Shown here one piece after another: positions 12,838-61,711 of a stretch of DNA of 64,000 bases (positions within the stretch are counted from its first letter, which is position 1; each line of letters begins with the position of its first letter). The stretch is from assembly GCF_004116725.1 (NCBI RefSeq), contig NZ_PDKG01000001.1, positions 434,001-498,000 of the forward strand, read 5' to 3'. Made by a program: the position numbers and the translations under genes. A model generated the notes under the pieces. It was not told where the DNA came from. It did not search any database and saw only the letters and a list, made by a program, of their open reading frames with translations. This DNA is from Arcobacter sp. CECT 8986. Lineage in GTDB: Bacteria > Campylobacterota > Campylobacteria > Campylobacterales > Arcobacteraceae.

Positions 12838-12912
12838 TGGCTCCGGATACTGGATTCGAACCAGTGGCCAAGTGATTAACAGTCACCTACTCTACCGCTG
12901 AGCTAATCCGGA
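12838..12912 (-). tRNA. tRNA-Asn(GTT), copy 3 in transcription order
   Basis: Minus-strand 75-nt cloverleaf with encoded CCA. Acceptor TCCGGAT/ATCCGGA, discriminator G, anticodon loop CTGTTAA (anticodon GTT), T loop TTCGAAT. Body identical to the copy at 13020-13094. Confidence 0.97.
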
Positions 12913-12927
12913 ATAAAAAAATTAAAG

Positions 12928-13002
12928 TGGCTCCGAATACTGGATTCGAACCAGTGGCCAAGTGATTAACAGTCACCTACTCTACCGCTGAGCTAATTCG
13001 GA
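12928..13002 (-). tRNA. tRNA-Asn(GTT), copy 2, compensatory acceptor-stem variant
   Basis: Same 75-nt tRNA with anticodon GTT and encoded CCA. The acceptor stem is TCCGAAT/ATTCGGA: a G-C pair of the sister copies is replaced by A-T on both sides, so pairing is preserved, which argues that this copy is functional. Confidence 0.97.
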
Positions 13003-13019
13003 ACTTACATTTAAAGAAA

Positions 13020-13094
13020 TGGCTCCGGATACTGGATTCGAACCAGTGGCCAAGTGATTAACAGTCACCTACTCTACCGCTGAGCTAATCCGGA
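13020..13094 (-). tRNA. tRNA-Asn(GTT), copy 1 (promoter-proximal)
   Basis: 75-nt cloverleaf, anticodon GTT, CCA encoded, acceptor TCCGGAT/ATCCGGA. First gene behind the consensus promoter at 13123-13151. The three copies are separated by only 15-17 bases, implying one processed transcript. Confidence 0.97.
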
Positions 13095-52180: not shown

Positions 52181-52807
52181 ATGTCAATTTTCAGAATTAT
52201 AAGTAAAATAATTGGTCATATTAATCAAAAAATCGCAGTAGTGGGTATCACTGCTGGGGTTTTTGTTGCTTTTGTAAATGTTGTTGCAAGATATCTTTTT
52301 GATGCATCATTTACATGGGCAAGTGAATTATCTATTTCACTATTTTTATGGAGTGTTTTCTTTGCAGCTGCTTATTGCTTCAAAAAAGATGCACATATTG
52401 CAGTTACAATCGTACTTGATGCGATGCCATCAAGAGTGGCAAAAGTAATGTTGGTTATATCTCATCTTATAACTTTCACATTTTTATGTGCAGTTGCATA
52501 TTTTGGATATAAATATTTACAGTTAGTAATTGATTTAGATGAAAGATCTATTGATCTTTGGAATATGCCAATGTGGATTATTTACTTAGTTGTACCTGTT
52601 TCTTTTGCTTTTGGAGCATACAGAGTTGCAGAGAGAATTCATGGTATTTTAAGTACAAACCATGACAAAATTGTAAAAGAGTCTGAAGCAGAGCATGTTT
52701 TAGCAGAAATGGGAATGAATTCAAGAGAGTATAAGGATAATGAGAATTTGCAAAATTTAAGTAAAATGGTTAAAGAAGTAGAGAAGAAAACAGGAGGAAT
52801 GCTATGA
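52181..52807 (+). CDS. dctQ: TRAP transporter small membrane subunit DctQ
   Basis: 208 residues with four membrane segments: VGITAGVFVAFVNVVARYLF, LSISLFLWSVFFAAAYCFKKDAHIAV, VAKVMLVISHLITFTFLCAVAYFG and PMWIIYLVVPVSFAFGAYRV; the family motif near FTWASELS is present. It forms the transporter with DctM. The C-terminal about 55 residues are a charged cytoplasmic tail, longer than usual. Its stop overlaps the dctM start. Confidence 0.94.
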   Translation: MSIFRIISKIIGHINQKIAVVGITAGVFVAFVNVVARYLFDASFTWASELSISLFLWSVFFAAAYCFKKDAHIAVTIVLDAMPSRVAKVMLVISHLITFTFLCAVAYFGYKYLQLVIDLDERSIDLWNMPMWIIYLVVPVSFAFGAYRVAERIHGILSTNHDKIVKESEAEHVLAEMGMNSREYKDNENLQNLSKMVKEVEKKTGGML

Positions 52808-54084
52808 GTATAGCTGTATTATTTGGTATATTTTTCTTCCTAGTTATTCTTGGAACACCTATTGCTATTTGTTTAGGTGGAGCAACATTTGTTACATTAT
52901 TGTTATTTACACCAATTTCACCAATTGAAATATCTGCAATGATGTTTGAAAAAGTTGAACACTATTCACTTATGGCTATTCCAATGTTTATTTTTGCTGG
53001 TAACTTACTTAGTAAAGGTAGTGCAGCACAAAGAATTATTGAATTTGCAAAATCTATAGTTGGACATTTACCAGGTGGTTTACCAATTTCAGCTATTTTT
53101 GCATCTATTATTTTCGCAGCAGTTTCAGGTAGTTCTCCAGCAACAGTTGTTGCTATTGGTTCTATTATGTTTGGTGCAATTATGCAAGCTGGTTATCCTA
53201 AAAAATATGCAGTTGGTACTATTGCAACAGCAGGTTCTTTAGGTATTTTAATTCCGCCATCAATTGTTTTAATTGTATATGGTGTAACAGCAGAAGTTTC
53301 TATTGGTAAACTATTTATGGCAGGTGTAATTCCAGGTATTATGCTTGGTATTATGCTAATTGTTGTAACTTATATTGGTGCAAAAAGATTAGGTTTTGAA
53401 AGAACAGAGCCACAACCATTTAAAGTAAGACTTAAGAAGATGAAAGATGCTGCTTGGGGTCTTATGACAATTGTTATTGTAATTGGTGGTATTTATGGTG
53501 GTATCTTTACACCAACTGAAGCTGCAGCAGTTGCTTGTATGTGGGCATTTTTTGTATCTGTATTTATTTATAGAGATATCAAATTCAATGAACTATATGC
53601 AACAGCTTTAGAATCAGCAAAAACAACTGCAATGATTATGTTTATTATTGCAAATGCAATGATTTTTGCACACTTTTTAACAATTGAGAATATTCCTCAA
53701 ATGATTACAAATGCTCTAGTTGAAGCAAATGTAAATAAATATATGTTCTTATTAATGGTTAACTTACTATTAATATTAGCAGGTTCATTTATGGAACCAA
53801 GTGCAATTATTATGATTTTAGTACCATTGTTACTTCCTGTTGCAACTGCATTAGGAATTGATCCAATTCACTTTGGTATTATAATTACTGTAAATATGGA
53901 GTTAGGAATGGTTTCCCCACCTGTTGGACTTAACCTTTTCGTAACATCTGGACTTACAGGTATGAGTATAAAAGATGTTATTGTTGCCACATTCCCGTGG
54001 ACAATGACAATTTTAGCTGGATTAATAGCTATTACTTATATTCCAGAAATTACTCTATTCTTACCAAACTTAATGTTTGGATAA
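52804..54084 (+). CDS. dctM: TRAP transporter large membrane subunit DctM
   Basis: 426 residues and about twelve membrane segments: LFGIFFFLVILGTPIAICLGGATFV, SLMAIPMFIFAGNLLSKG, and the GILIPPSIVLIVYGVTAEVSIGKLFMAGVIPG motif, with MEPSAIIMILVPLLLPVATALGIDPIHFGIIITVNMELGMVSPPVGLNLFV late in the protein. Sodium-driven import of a periplasmic acid delivered by DctP. Starts with a GGAGG ribosome site inside dctQ, and ends 5 bases before the first copy of a duplicated terminator hairpin. Confidence 0.95.
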   Translation: MSIAVLFGIFFFLVILGTPIAICLGGATFVTLLLFTPISPIEISAMMFEKVEHYSLMAIPMFIFAGNLLSKGSAAQRIIEFAKSIVGHLPGGLPISAIFASIIFAAVSGSSPATVVAIGSIMFGAIMQAGYPKKYAVGTIATAGSLGILIPPSIVLIVYGVTAEVSIGKLFMAGVIPGIMLGIMLIVVTYIGAKRLGFERTEPQPFKVRLKKMKDAAWGLMTIVIVIGGIYGGIFTPTEAAAVACMWAFFVSVFIYRDIKFNELYATALESAKTTAMIMFIIANAMIFAHFLTIENIPQMITNALVEANVNKYMFLLMVNLLLILAGSFMEPSAIIMILVPLLLPVATALGIDPIHFGIIITVNMELGMVSPPVGLNLFVTSGLTGMSIKDVIVATFPWTMTILAGLIAITYIPEITLFLPNLMFG

Positions 54085-54089
54085 AAGTA

Positions 54090-54114
54090 TAAAATAGGCT
54101 TTTGCCTATTTTAT
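54090..54114 (+). terminator. Terminator after dctM, copy 1 of a 25-bp direct repeat
   Basis: AAAATAGGC pairs with GCCTATTTT around TTTT (54091-54112); two more A-T pairs extend the stem. The identical 25 bases recur at 55475-55499. This copy has no long T run after it. Confidence 0.75.
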
Positions 54115-54200
54115 TACTTACATACAAAAGAACTACATAAAATTCTTCTATCTTAACTTAAAAAATCCCATTTATTTATATTTTTTAAATAATACAAAAG

Positions 54201-54206
54201 TATAAT
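54201..54206 (+). promoter_or_regulatory. -10 box of the KAP NTPase gene
   Basis: TATAAT at 54201-54206, 28 bases ahead of the ATG, with no clear -35 box. Confidence 0.45.
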
Positions 54207-54234
54207 AACTTACTAAAATCATAAAGTAGAATAA

Positions 54235-55473
54235 ATGGAAGAAAAATATAATTTAAGAACAAATGATAATAATTATAATAAAGATGATAAATTAAAAAGA
54301 AAAGAATTAGCAGAAAAATATGTAAAATTTATTACTAGTTTAGATAGTCATCATGTTATAGCACTTGATTCACCTTGGGGAACGGGTAAATCTACTTTTA
54401 TTAATTATATGTGTGAAAAATTAAAAGTAAATAATAGTGTATTTGTATCATATAATGCATGGGAAAATGACTATACAAAAGAGCCTCTTATATCTTTAAT
54501 GAATGATATTTTTCATCAATTCAAAGATAAAAAATATATTGGCATTGATAAAATGAAATCTTCAATGAATAAAATATCATTCATAGCTAAAAAAGGTGGC
54601 AGTGCAATTCTAAAAGGAGGATCAAAACTTTTTTTAGGAGAAAAAGGAACAAATGACATTGAAGATGCACTAAAAGAGGCAGCAAAACTTTTTATTAAAG
54701 ATGTAAGTGATGATATTTTTAAAGATGTTGAAGAAAGCAAAAAATCAAGACAACAATTTAAAGAAGAACTAAAAAAATATACAAAAAAAATATTAGAAGA
54801 AAAAAATAAAGATAAATTAATTATATTAATTGATGAATTAGATAGGTGTAAACCTTCATTTGCAATTGAATTACTTGAAAATATCAAACACTTATTTGAT
54901 ATTGAAAATATTATATTTTTTATTGCAGTTGATAATAAGCAATTAGCAGAATCTATTAAATCTATTTATGGAAATGGTTTTGATGCAAATACATATCTTC
55001 ACAGATTTTTTGATATAGAACTTCACTTACCAAAAAATAACATGAATAAATATTTTATAATACAACTTGATAAAAAAGTTTATCAAGATACTTATAATAA
55101 AATCAAAGATATAAATGAGTTTACAGCAGATACGATAAAAGCATTTAATCTTTCAATAAGAGACATTGATAGAATTTGCAATGAAATATTTTTATTATCA
55201 AAACTATTTCACATGGAAGAACCTAATATTTATTTGTTTCTATTAATTTTGAAATATAAGAATAATACCTTTTACAAGTATATTAAAAGTAAAAATAAAC
55301 TACTTGGCATTCAAGATATTGATAAATATTTTGAAGATCATAAAAATGAAAGAGATTTTTTCTATAATTATTTCTTTAAATATTGTTTTAACAAAAGGCA
55401 AAGTACCAATAATTATACTAAAATAAATGAGATAACGGTAGAAGCCTTTAGAAGAATAGAAGAAACTTTATAA
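54235..55473 (+). CDS. KAP family P-loop NTPase
   Basis: 412 residues. Walker A SPWGTGKST (46-54), VSYNAWENDY (71-80), Walker B LIILIDELDRC (195-205), AVDNKQLAESIKSIYG and RFFDIELHLP complete the KAP_NTPase pattern; no membrane helix is visible in the usual insertion. KAP NTPases include PifA of the F plasmid and other phage-exclusion or membrane-associated proteins, so a defence role is possible but not shown. It stands alone, with its own promoter, between two identical terminator hairpins, and has no link to the TRAP genes or the NosL operon. Weak ribosome site. The gene is AT-rich like its surroundings. Confidence 0.85.
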   Translation: MEEKYNLRTNDNNYNKDDKLKRKELAEKYVKFITSLDSHHVIALDSPWGTGKSTFINYMCEKLKVNNSVFVSYNAWENDYTKEPLISLMNDIFHQFKDKKYIGIDKMKSSMNKISFIAKKGGSAILKGGSKLFLGEKGTNDIEDALKEAAKLFIKDVSDDIFKDVEESKKSRQQFKEELKKYTKKILEEKNKDKLIILIDELDRCKPSFAIELLENIKHLFDIENIIFFIAVDNKQLAESIKSIYGNGFDANTYLHRFFDIELHLPKNNMNKYFIIQLDKKVYQDTYNKIKDINEFTADTIKAFNLSIRDIDRICNEIFLLSKLFHMEEPNIYLFLLILKYKNNTFYKYIKSKNKLLGIQDIDKYFEDHKNERDFFYNYFFKYCFNKRQSTNNYTKINEITVEAFRRIEETL

Positions 55474-55474
55474 T

Positions 55475-55508
55475 TAAAATAGGCTTTTGCCTATTTTATC
55501 TTTTTTTT
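55475..55508. terminator. Terminator after the KAP gene, copy 2 of the 25-bp repeat
   Basis: Same hairpin as 54090-54114, exact over 25 bases (55475-55499), followed on the plus strand by eight T (55501-55508). It contains the stop codon of the minus-strand NosL-like gene, so it serves both convergent genes. Confidence 0.8.
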
Positions 55509-56077
55509 AATAACTCTCTTTTTATCATAGGATTTAGTAAAGTTTCACCTCTTAAAGCAAACTGTTTAATTTCATCAAACTCATAAATTTGTTTTGTTTC
55601 TCTTTTGATTTTAAAATTACCTATTTGCTCTTCTATTGTAGATCTTGTCATCGCACTTGTTATTGCACCAATCGAAGTCTCATAAGCTCCAAATCCATAC
55701 CCTAAAGGTGTATTTGCATCTCTTATATACCAAGCAAGCTTTGCATCAATATAAGCGCCTGTATCTGTTGAATACACATACATTTTAGCTTTGTTTTTAA
55801 ACTCTTGTCTATCAAGCCATCTTATCATACATCCAACATCATCAAAAAAATATACATTATGATTATAAATAACTTGAGCAGAATTTAGATATCTTTTAAT
55901 CATCATATCACAATCATTACAAATGTATCTATTTTTGTATGTTTCTAATACAACTCTATATGGTGTATCTTGCATATAATTATGCTCTACTTTTATATCT
56001 TCTCTTGTATCTTTTGAGTAATTATATAAAAATAAAGAGATAATAATTAAAAAAATATATGGTAAAACTCTTCTCAT
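55496..56077 (-). CDS. NosL-like protein, single domain
   Basis: 193 residues. One N-terminal membrane anchor (about 5-18), then a NosL-type core: ICNDCDMMI (C53, C56, M58, M59) and the downstream VYFFDDVGCMIRWLD, spaced as in NosL, the Cu(I)-binding accessory protein of nitrous oxide reductase. The Cys/Met arrangement suggests copper binding on the periplasmic side. No nosZ or nosDFY is visible in the window, so it is not an ordinary nos cluster. Last gene of a ten-gene operon, overlapping the preceding gene by 4 bases. Confidence 0.75.
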   Translation of the reverse strand: MRRVLPYIFLIIISLFLYNYSKDTREDIKVEHNYMQDTPYRVVLETYKNRYICNDCDMMIKRYLNSAQVIYNHNVYFFDDVGCMIRWLDRQEFKNKAKMYVYSTDTGAYIDAKLAWYIRDANTPLGYGFGAYETSIGAITSAMTRSTIEEQIGNFKIKRETKQIYEFDEIKQFALRGETLLNPMIKRELLKKR

Positions 56078-60016: not shown

Positions 60017-60861
60017 TTTTCTGCCTTATAATTTTCTAATAATTTATAATTATCACAAGCTAGTTTCAATCCTTTGTCACAAGATTTTTTAAATAAATCT
60101 TTTGCTTTTATAAAGTCTTGTTTTACACCTAATCCTTTTATATGAAGAACTGCAAGATTGTTGCATCCTTTTAATCCATCTTTACTTTTACACGCTTTTT
60201 CATATAAAGAAGCAGCCTTTTTAAAATCTTGTTTTACGCCTTTTTTATTTTCATACATATTACCTAGGTTTTCACAAGCAATAGATACTCCTGCCTTACA
60301 CGCTTTTGTATATAATTGTATTGCCACATTATAATTTTGTGATGTACCTCTTGCACTTTCATACATAAAAGCTAAATTACTACATCCTAATTCATCATAA
60401 CTATTACAAGACTTTTTATAAAAAGAGAATGCTTTTTTTGTATCTTCTTTTACACCATTAGCGCTATCGTATATTCTTCCAAGGTTATTACAACTTGCTG
60501 CATGATTTTGCGTACAAGCTTTTTCATATAAAGTTATTGATTTTTTAATATCTTTTTTTACATCTTTAGCATTCATATAAATAACACCTAAGTTATAACA
60601 AGCTGAAACAAAGTTTTTATTACAAGCCATTTCATAATATTTTATAGCTTTCTTTGTATCTTTTTTTATTCCTTTTGAACCCATATATAATACACCCAAG
60701 TTATAACAAGCAGAAGCTTTGTTATCTTTAATACAAGCATTTTCATAAATAGATGTAACTTTTTTATGGTCACCTTTTTTATGAGCTTCCACACTCTCTT
60801 TTATATATCCTGCTTGTAACACAGAAAATAAAATTGTAAATAAAATTAAATATTTCTTCAT
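60013..60861 (-). CDS. Hcp-like Sel1-repeat protein, exported
   Basis: 282 residues. Signal peptide (1-18, ...SVLQA-GY) and about six to seven Sel1-type repeats of 36 residues, each with a Cys pair such as ACYNLGVLY...YYEMAC. Paired cysteines in Sel1 repeats mark the Helicobacter cysteine-rich proteins (Hcp), which are disulfide-locked periplasmic scaffolds. A protein-binding role in assembly is inferred from the operon. The ATG at 60861 follows AAAGGAG; an in-frame upstream start at 60888 is inside the preceding gene. Confidence 0.85.
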   Translation of the reverse strand: MKKYLILFTILFSVLQAGYIKESVEAHKKGDHKKVTSIYENACIKDNKASACYNLGVLYMGSKGIKKDTKKAIKYYEMACNKNFVSACYNLGVIYMNAKDVKKDIKKSITLYEKACTQNHAASCNNLGRIYDSANGVKEDTKKAFSFYKKSCNSYDELGCSNLAFMYESARGTSQNYNVAIQLYTKACKAGVSIACENLGNMYENKKGVKQDFKKAASLYEKACKSKDGLKGCNNLAVLHIKGLGVKQDFIKAKDLFKKSCDKGLKLACDNYKLLENYKAEK

Positions 60862-60871
60862 AATTTCTCCT

Positions 60872-61711
60872 TTAAAATCCCATATCATCTAACATCAAAT
60901 ACTCCAAACAACTTGCATTATCTCCAAGATTGCAGCCTCTTTCATAAATCTGTTTTGCTTTTATATAGTTTTGTCTTGTTCCTCTACCAGTTGCATGTAA
61001 AACTGCAAGTTTATAACACATAACAGTATCTTCTTTATCGCATCCTTCTTTATAAACTTTTAGTAATTTTTTATATCCATCTGGATTTGTAGTTGCGATA
61101 TCTTTTATGTAAATATCTACTAATCTAAAGCATGATTCTGTATCTTCTTTATCACAACCTTTTTTATACCAAGTTGCAGCACCTTTTGTATCTTTTTGTT
61201 TATTTAAAATATTTCCTGCTTTATAACAACCTAATAAAAAGCCTTTTTCACATGCAACTTTGTACATATCTAAACTTTTTTTTGCATTTTTTTTAGGCTC
61301 TAAATAGTATTGGTAAACAGAACCTAAATTGTAACAAGCAAGAGCAAAGCCTTTTTTACAAGATTTTGAATAATATTTTTCAGCTTTTTTATAATCTGTT
61401 TTAAGTTTTAATATTCCACCTTTGTCATAACAAACTCCAACTTTATAGCAAGCTCTTTCATTTCCTAAACTGCAAGCTTTATCATAAAACTCAAATGCTT
61501 TTTTAAAATCTTGTTTTACACTCTGTTTATTTTCATACATAAAACCAACTTTATAGCACCCTTCACTACTTTTGCTTTGACAAGCTTTTTGATAAGATTC
61601 AAATGCTTTTTTATATTGGGCTTTTGAATAAAAACTATCAGCTGTATCAATAGTATTAGCATAAACAACAAACATTGTTGATAATAATAAATATAGTAAT
61701 AACTTTTTCAT
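60872..61711 (-). CDS. Hcp-like Sel1-repeat protein, exported (paralogue)
   Basis: 279 residues. Signal peptide (1-18, ...FVVYA-NT), then about seven 36-residue Cys-pair Sel1 repeats (ACQSKSSEGCYKVGFMY, KACSLGNERACYKVG, and so on). Closely similar in design to the next gene, so probably a tandem duplication that has diverged. Good AGGAGTGAAGTT start. Periplasmic, role inferred as a scaffold or chaperone for the cytochrome or metal machinery encoded around it. Confidence 0.85.
   Translation of the reverse strand: MKKLLLYLLLSTMFVVYANTIDTADSFYSKAQYKKAFESYQKACQSKSSEGCYKVGFMYENKQSVKQDFKKAFEFYDKACSLGNERACYKVGVCYDKGGILKLKTDYKKAEKYYSKSCKKGFALACYNLGSVYQYYLEPKKNAKKSLDMYKVACEKGFLLGCYKAGNILNKQKDTKGAATWYKKGCDKEDTESCFRLVDIYIKDIATTNPDGYKKLLKVYKEGCDKEDTVMCYKLAVLHATGRGTRQNYIKAKQIYERGCNLGDNASCLEYLMLDDMGF

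What the first reader, a model, noticed from the sequence alone, without database searches (positions are those of the whole stretch)
54235..55473. Solitary KAP P-loop NTPase as a possible defence gene
It has full Walker A and B motifs, no partner genes and its own promoter, and sits in an insertion-like context between conserved operons. That is typical of single-gene accessory defence modules such as PifA, though function is not shown by sequence.
Basis: inference. Interest (0 to 1): 0.5.

Follow-up and report, generated by a model that had tools for sequence, protein, structure and literature searches.

The report
Recently inserted single-gene phage-defence candidate
One ATPase gene, of a family suspected of protecting bacteria against viruses, sits alone between two ordinary operons inside a duplicated transcription terminator; its closest cousins are mostly in prophages, where they have a small membrane partner that this copy lacks.

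Summary
In detail: 54235-55473 encodes an intact 412-aa KAP-family ATPase, alone between dctPQM and a nosL-like gene. It looks like a recent insertion: an exact 25-bp direct repeat, a terminator hairpin with no other exact copy in the genome, brackets it; the other 5 genomes of the genus lack it, and two of them show the empty junction. By profile it belongs to PADLOC's phage-defence candidate PDC-S20 (296 bits), far above PifA (72) and QatA (65), and no transmembrane segment was found. The model's best solved match is RdrA, the ring ATPase of RADAR (Z 18.8; next fold 13.3). In 4 of 6 loci of its subfamily, three of them viral contigs, a membrane protein with two predicted helices follows directly; this copy and one other lack it. 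Across the family 7 of 176 genes are bracketed by exact repeats of 20 bp or more, against 2 of 399 neighbouring genes; this was tested after the window's repeat had been seen, and weakens under looser settings. "Accessory defence gene" is therefore plausible but unproven. "Own promoter" is not shown, and PDC-S20, not PifA, is the right comparison. Whether it works without the partner is open.

The parts
54235..55473 (+). KAP-family P-loop (AAA+-like) ATPase, 412 aa, no transmembrane segment found, PADLOC PDC-S20 type
54373..54396 (+). Walker A, residues 47-54 (PWGTGKST)
   Evidence: sequence; W48 G49 G51 K52 invariant over 20 homologues
54814..54837 (+). Walker B strand and acidic pair, residues 194-201 (KLIILIDE)
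   Evidence: sequence; D200 E201 invariant over 20 homologues
55159..55161 (+). R309, invariant arginine in a sensor-2-like place (label by analogy with RdrA R377)
   Evidence: invariant over 20 homologues; RdrA sensor 2 from PMC9994260 (passages); the equivalence was not read off a residue-level structural alignment
54484..54804 (+). helical insert, residues 84-190, between the strand at 69-74 and the Walker B strand; no transmembrane helix
   Evidence: model m2f676b1f9d70 (residues 121-162 of low confidence); hydropathy scan
54090..54114 (.). left copy of the exact 25-bp direct repeat, hairpin TAAAATAGGC-TTTT-GCCTATTTTAT; called a terminator on the minus strand
55475..55499 (.). right copy of the same 25-bp repeat; called a terminator on the plus strand; overlaps the last bases of the nosL-like gene
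54115..55499 (.). inferred inserted unit (KAP gene plus one repeat copy), 1385 bp
   Evidence: repeat spacing; empty junctions in G003 and G005; joined flanks align better to the G003 junction than either actual junction does
52804..54084 (+). dctM, last gene of the resident dctPQM operon; left flank of the insertion
55496..56077 (-). nosL-like gene; right flank of the insertion

Best explanation
A horizontally acquired, single-gene anti-phage ATPase of the PDC-S20 branch of the KAP NTPases. SHOWN: the gene with its intact ATPase motifs lies between two exact copies of a 25-bp terminator hairpin, and two sister genomes have one hairpin and no gene at that junction. INFERRED: it was inserted into the bidirectional terminator between dctM and the nosL-like gene after this lineage split from its nearest sampled relative, the hairpin core being duplicated so that each copy kept one outer tail (loss by excision between repeats in the sister genomes is the less economical alternative). 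INFERRED from the model's match to RdrA and from what a paper reports for QatA: the protein assembles into a ring of about seven subunits. INFERRED: it stays idle until a phage component or phage-induced state triggers ATP-driven remodelling, which blocks phage growth or halts the infected cell. INFERRED from relatives: the membrane connection that Tmn has within its own chain is, in the prophage cousins, supplied by a separate two-helix protein encoded just downstream; the window copy has lost that gene, or never had it, and either works alone like the many partnerless PDC-S20 genes or borrows another membrane protein.
For: Insertion: gene in 1 of 6 genomes of the genus; dctM and the nosL-like gene adjacent in G003 and G005 with one hairpin between; exact 25-bp repeat on both sides, whose 23-bp core has no other exact copy in the genome; of 30 hairpins (perfect stem of 8 or more) in 224 kb of the same contig only this one shares 18 bp or more with a second place within 12 kb; joined flanks align to the G003 junction with score 284, against 132.5 and 252.5 for the two actual junctions. 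Defence by family: PDC-S20 at 2.5e-88; the five subfamily relatives are 43-58% identical, three of them in IMG/VR viral contigs that each carry a phage integrase gene within 6 kb; in 22 of the 80 IMG/VR loci fetched a tail gene of one neighbour cluster lies directly downstream on the other strand (tail family checked for two of them); a KAP gene lies between a CI repressor and an integrase in a Vibrio record, the position reported as a Vibrionaceae prophage defence hotspot (PMC9122126, passages). Neighbouring defence candidates: DUF2971/PDC-S31 beside L075 and TIR-TM beside L082; 4 of 114 scanned neighbours match type I specificity subunits. Structure: RdrA Z 18.8 over 328 residues, next other fold 13.3. 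Published KAP defence proteins: Tmn (PMC11846954, passages) and QatA, which forms heptamers or octamers (PMC13279940, passages).
Against: I found no phenotype for any PDC-S20 member (open-access papers only). KAP proteins are not all defence proteins (Kidins220 is the animal example; recalled). In QatABCD, QatBC alone defended fully against one phage, while loss of QatA and QatD together restored sensitivity to others, so the KAP protein's own role is unclear even there. No other defence gene lies beside the window gene among the neighbours scanned. The partner found in 4 of 6 subfamily loci has no match in this genome. The structural likeness to RdrA is at 13% identity and says nothing about function; ORC/Cdc6 and NLR ATPases follow in the list.
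Confidence: 0.6

Rival explanations
1. Orphan relic: the functional module is KAP ATPase plus two-helix membrane protein, and the window copy is a stranded half that no longer works.
For: Partner 10-19 bp downstream in L075, L175, L176, and overlapping the gene's end in L177; no partner match in the window genome; the two partnerless copies (window, L076) fall in different branches of the subfamily, each beside partner-bearing copies (support 0.98 for L076+L177, only 0.58 for the window's node). If the insertion is recent, an intact frame is weak evidence of function.
Against: The ORF is full-length with its motifs and the C-terminal end shared with the prophage copies (RIEET-L/I) intact. In the wider family no downstream partner recurs: among 181 loci, 10 have a same-strand downstream ORF with two or more predicted helices within 120 bp, four of them the subfamily loci, and only two such downstream groups recur in three loci each, one being L075/L175/L176.
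Confidence: 0.17
2. A prophage lysogeny or partition factor rather than a defence protein, captured by the chromosome; in two elements it sits near parA/parB.
For: ParB-like genes lie 0.3 and 0.8 kb, and ParA-like genes 1.3 and 3.8 kb, upstream of the KAP gene in L175 and L075.
Against: No ParA- or ParB-like gene was recognised by eye in the L176 and L177 ORF lists (not all of those ORFs were scanned); other prophages, plasmids and integron-like settings carry the family too, so an accessory position rather than partition is the common factor.
Confidence: 0.13
3. An ordinary cellular gene linked to nitrous-oxide reduction or TRAP transport.
For: Only its position beside nosL-like and dctM genes.
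Against: Absent from the other 5 genomes of the genus, two of which keep the flanking genes adjacent.
Confidence: 0.03

Closest known systems
PADLOC phage-defence candidate PDC-S20
   Same: Same family by profile (295.7 bits, residues 6-384 on profile 7-393 of 464); single-gene candidate; prophage and accessory contexts
   Different: Window copy belongs to a short clade (404-423 aa; 147 of the 181 loci have 440-500 aa), 4 of whose 6 members carry a two-helix partner gene; no function found in the library searched
Tmn (KAP-family defence NTPase)
   Same: KAP NTPase, accessory defence protein
   Different: Tmn is characterised by two transmembrane domains (PMC11846954, passage); none found here
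PifA (F-plasmid T7 exclusion)
   Same: Shares the KAP P-loop domain (72 bits)
   Different: 720-position profile; alignment covers residues 16-269 here only; no transmembrane segment here
QatA of QatABCD
   Same: KAP NTPase (65 bits PADLOC, 68 bits NCBIfam); rings of 7-8 reported for QatA
   Different: Far below NCBIfam's 600-bit cut-off; no qatB/C/D beside the gene
RdrA of RADAR
   Same: Best solved-structure match along the chain (Z 18.8, 328 residues); helical insert before the Walker B strand
   Different: 13% identity; RdrA chains are about 780-850 residues with a C-terminal lobe; no rdrB beside the gene

Membership tests
KAP P-loop NTPases (PF07693) | profile match over the gathering score across the domain | tested here: met
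   135.5 bits against cut-off 20, profile 1-287 of 293
[quoted passage not shown]
PDC-S20 (PADLOC) | match to the PDC-S20 profiles, ahead of all other PADLOC models | tested here: met
   the four PDC-S20 models rank first, best 2.5e-88; PADLOC's own coverage cut-offs were not applied
PDC-S20 (PADLOC) | anti-phage activity | not testable with these tools
   no experiment; 'PDC-S20' occurs in 0 papers of the library
Tmn | two transmembrane segments in the KAP protein | tested here: not met
   0 segments by a 19-residue hydropathy scan, a simple predictor; definition from PMC11846954 (passage)
PifA | full-length match to PifA | tested here: not met
   profile positions 15-257 of 720 only
QatABCD | QatA above NCBIfam's equivalog cut-off | tested here: not met
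   68.1 bits against 600
QatABCD | qatB, qatC, qatD beside qatA | tested here: not met
   neighbours are dctM and nosL-like
RADAR | adenosine-deaminase-like rdrB beside rdrA | tested here: not met
   neighbours are dctM and nosL-like; the rest of the genome was not searched for rdrB
RADAR | RdrA-like heptameric ring | not testable with these tools
   only a monomer was modelled
KAP + two-helix membrane protein pair (form seen in relatives) | two-helix protein directly downstream | tested here: not met
   next gene is the convergent nosL-like gene; no partner match in G000 at E <= 0.001

The most novel reading that the evidence does not exclude
PDC-S20 KAP genes travel as minimal one-gene units of about 1.4-2 kb that carry no recombinase and use whatever short palindromic or tRNA-end site a recombinase acting in trans recognises: integron attC-like sites (L082, L134), a tRNA-Ser 3' end (L079) and terminator-like hairpins (the window, L180). 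In the window the terminator itself would have served as the attachment site, so that insertion leaves each neighbour with a hairpin. Within the subfamily the KAP ATPase and a two-helix membrane protein form an undescribed split version of Tmn/PifA, from which the ATPase has been lifted out at least twice.
Probability: 0.2. Interest if true: 0.65.

Novelty: new member of a known kind. Interest (0 to 1): 0.42.

Why it matters
It gives a footprint-bearing insertion of one gene of an untested defence-candidate family, so that a deletion or transplant test has a natural control (the empty junction in a sister species). It ties PDC-S20 to a solved defence ATPase fold (RdrA) and to a small membrane partner, which suggests what to co-express when testing the family. 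If terminator hairpins can act as landing sites for single defence genes, searches for defence genes that rely on islands would miss such insertions.

Tried and rejected
PifA/Tmn/QatA membership: tested and not met. Solved relatives by sequence: only generic P-loop ATPases, best E 0.0079. Own promoter: not above chance. Partner elsewhere in the genome: no match. Homology between the L177 membrane protein and the L175 one: only a 26-residue match at 2e-4, so their kinship is likely but not firm. The two-helix proteins scanned match no Pfam family over its cut-off. Repeats around the other chromosomal copy, L076: none longer than 11 bp.

Strength of the repeat statistic: it was computed after the window repeat had been seen. 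Exact repeats of 20 bp or more within 400 bp: 7 of 176 KAP genes against 2 of 399 neighbouring genes of 300-600 aa (p 0.0046); without the window 6 of 175 against 2 of 399 (p 0.012); with a looser score over 600 bp 7 of 176 against 4 of 399 (p 0.04). Dropped first: three duplicate loci (L132, L170, L172) and two with short flanks; near-duplicates among the viral contigs (for example L202/L203 and L197/L198) were not dropped. L160's repeat has 7 dispersed copies in its genome and L134's recurs along its contig, so those two are weaker cases. No integron integrase was sought near L082 or L134. PADLOC tally of neighbours: 114 of the 164 neighbours listed were given; the output names families, not members, and no control set was scanned, so it is weak evidence. 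The neighbour clustering was recounted.

Literature: 10 searches, open-access papers only; papers were seen as passages. The 2004 KAP paper and one RADAR paper are not held. What I say of PifA's biology and of Kidins220 is recalled; of the 2004 paper I saw only the title in a reference list.

Full report
The gene. The ORF at 54235-55473 (+) encodes 412 aa and is bounded by dctM (150 bp upstream, same strand) and a convergent nosL-like gene (22 bp downstream). It is a KAP-family P-loop NTPase (Pfam 135.5 bits). Walker A residues W48, G49, G51 and K52, Walker B D200-E201, and R309 are invariant over the 20 homologues aligned. A hydropathy scan finds no transmembrane segment. GC is 22% against 26% for the window, a mild difference in an AT-rich genome.

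It is most likely an insertion. The other five genomes of the genus have no match (1 of 6), although all six have dctM. In G003 and G005 the nosL-like gene (98% and 78% identical) lies next to dctM with a single hairpin between them (the G005 hairpin read by eye). In G001, G002 and G004 no close nosL homologue was found (best 39-43%, elsewhere); for G002 and G004 the sequence after dctM was seen and differs, for G001 it was not examined. The window gene is flanked by an exact 25-bp direct repeat at 54090-54114 and 55475-55499. The 23-bp core has exactly two exact copies in the 2.65-Mb genome. Each copy is a hairpin, but the left one is called a terminator only on the minus strand and the right one only on the plus strand: the outer flanks of the pair add up to one bidirectional terminator. 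Joining the flanks at the repeat gives a sequence that aligns to G003's junction with score 284, against 132.5 and 252.5 for the two actual junctions (the right one is already close because half of it is resident sequence). Of 30 hairpins with a perfect stem of 8 or more in 224 kb of the same contig, only this one recurs within 12 kb; five more in two other 20-kb stretches do not. The two copies are identical while G003's hairpin differs at several positions, which fits an insertion after the split from G003 (inference; excision between the repeats in the sister genomes would leave a similar empty site and is not strictly excluded).

What family. The four PADLOC PDC-S20 models rank first (best 295.7 bits), ahead of PifA (72) and QatA (65); NCBIfam QatA is far below its cut-off; phrog_8614, of unknown function, also matches. 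'PDC' stands for phage defence candidate, and PMC12482510 says of the PDC genes it met that they are still uncharacterised (passages); 'PDC-S20' itself occurs in none of the papers of the library. Among 299 relatives, 50 genomes have some match to this protein at E <= 0.001, but only three (the window genome, G077 at 59%, G038 at 46%) carry a full-length member of this subfamily; two more have contig-end fragments, G063 (53% over 54 aa) and G126 (43% over 92 aa). The G063 fragment lies beside the same desulfoferrodoxin-like gene as the G038 copy; of the 10 genomes of that genus searched, these two show KAP there, though not every other site was examined.

The subfamily and its partner. Six full-length members were found: the window, L075 (G077), L076 (G038), and L175, L176, L177 in IMG/VR viral contigs, at 43-58% identity to the window protein. 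In the tree they form one clade with support 1.00. L175, L176 and L177 each have a phage integrase gene within 6 kb; L075 has ParA- and ParB-like genes upstream and was not tested for being a prophage. In 4 of the 6 a protein with two predicted membrane helices follows: 172-180 aa and clearly homologous in L075, L175 and L176, 281 aa and only weakly similar in L177. The window and L076 lack it, and the window genome has no match to it. L076 pairs with L177 (support 0.98) and the window with the other three (support 0.58), so two losses, or two gains, are needed. Related proteins, sharing by eye a motif of the form LLASxSVMKxIxNTNxIE, occur elsewhere in the family, in a tandem array (L261) and, in L262, between a gene that looks like a methylase and one with a YhcG nuclease domain; those scanned match no described family over its cut-off.

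Where the wider family lives. In 22 of the 80 IMG/VR loci fetched with the first query a tail gene of one neighbour cluster (30 loci in all, 28 of them IMG/VR) lies directly downstream on the other strand; the family was checked for two of them (phrog_52, tail protein), and the likeness to the late region of P2-like phages is recalled. In Vibrio furnissii a KAP gene and a DUF2971 gene lie between a CI repressor and an integrase, the position of a prophage defence hotspot described by Rousset and colleagues (PMC9122126, passages). L075's next gene after the partner is a DUF2971 protein that PADLOC lists as PDC-S31. Of 114 neighbours scanned, 4 match type I restriction specificity subunits. Among 181 KAP loci no downstream partner recurs widely: two same-strand downstream groups recur in three loci each, one of them the L075/L175/L176 membrane protein.

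Repeat-bounded single genes. Searching 179 KAP loci for exact repeats across the gene gave a gap in the distribution: seven at 24-37 bp, all others at 14 bp or less. They are of different kinds: a tRNA-Ser 3' end duplicated around one KAP gene (L079), attC-like sites (L082, L134; my reading of the sequence; a 31-base piece of L082's occurs twice in its genome), terminator-like hairpins (the window; L180, folded, no terminator scan run), a long repeat (L189) and a dispersed element (L160). The control is 2 of 399 neighbouring genes; the weaker variants and caveats are in Tried and rejected. That integrons carry anti-phage cassettes is published (PMC12409362, passages).

Structure and mechanism. 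The AlphaFold2 model (mean pLDDT 76) matches RdrA best by Foldseek and by VIA-align 2: Z 18.8, rmsd 5.3 over 328 residues, with seven RdrA entries at 15.5-18.8 before the next fold (Cdc6, 13.3). RdrA is a heptameric AAA+ ring in which a four-helix bundle replaces the usual helix after strands 2 and 3 (PMC9994260, passages); the model here also has four helices (84-95, 104-128, 141-152, 155-189) before the Walker B strand, part of them at low confidence. [quoted passage not shown] My proposal is that this branch keeps a soluble helical insert and, in its prophage form, obtains its membrane helices from the separate partner. The proposal is inference; the ring, the trigger and the outcome for the cell are all untested.

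Verdict. What remains open is whether the partnerless copy is active.

Noticed in passing
L175:7184-7702, L176:7256-7798, L075:8740-9279 (minus); also L256, L257, L258, L259, L261, L262: A small membrane-protein family with two predicted helices and, by eye, a shared motif of the form LLASxSVMKxIxNTNxIE: next to KAP genes, in a tandem array (L261), and between a methylase-like gene and a YhcG nuclease gene (L262); those scanned match no described family over its cut-off.
   Followed up: partly
L079:8925-10750: A single KAP gene sits between a tRNA-Ser gene and a 33-bp copy of that tRNA's 3' end, with no integrase-sized ORF in between.
   Followed up: partly
L082:1663-4039: A KAP gene between two near-identical attC-like sites, followed by a TIR protein matching PADLOC TIR-TM: it looks like an integron array of defence cassettes in a genome of the same family; no integron integrase was sought.
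   Followed up: partly
window 12838-13094: Three tandem, near-identical tRNA-Asn (GTT) genes on the minus strand.
   Followed up: partly
window 60078-61561: Seven 91-nt degenerate repeats, six of them at about 108-nt spacing, probably a helical-repeat (Sel1/TPR-like) protein beside the nosL-type genes (family not checked).
   Followed up: no
G000:C2:415913-416659 (L002): A second, longer KAP gene (622-aa frame, 74 bits) in the same genome.
   Followed up: no
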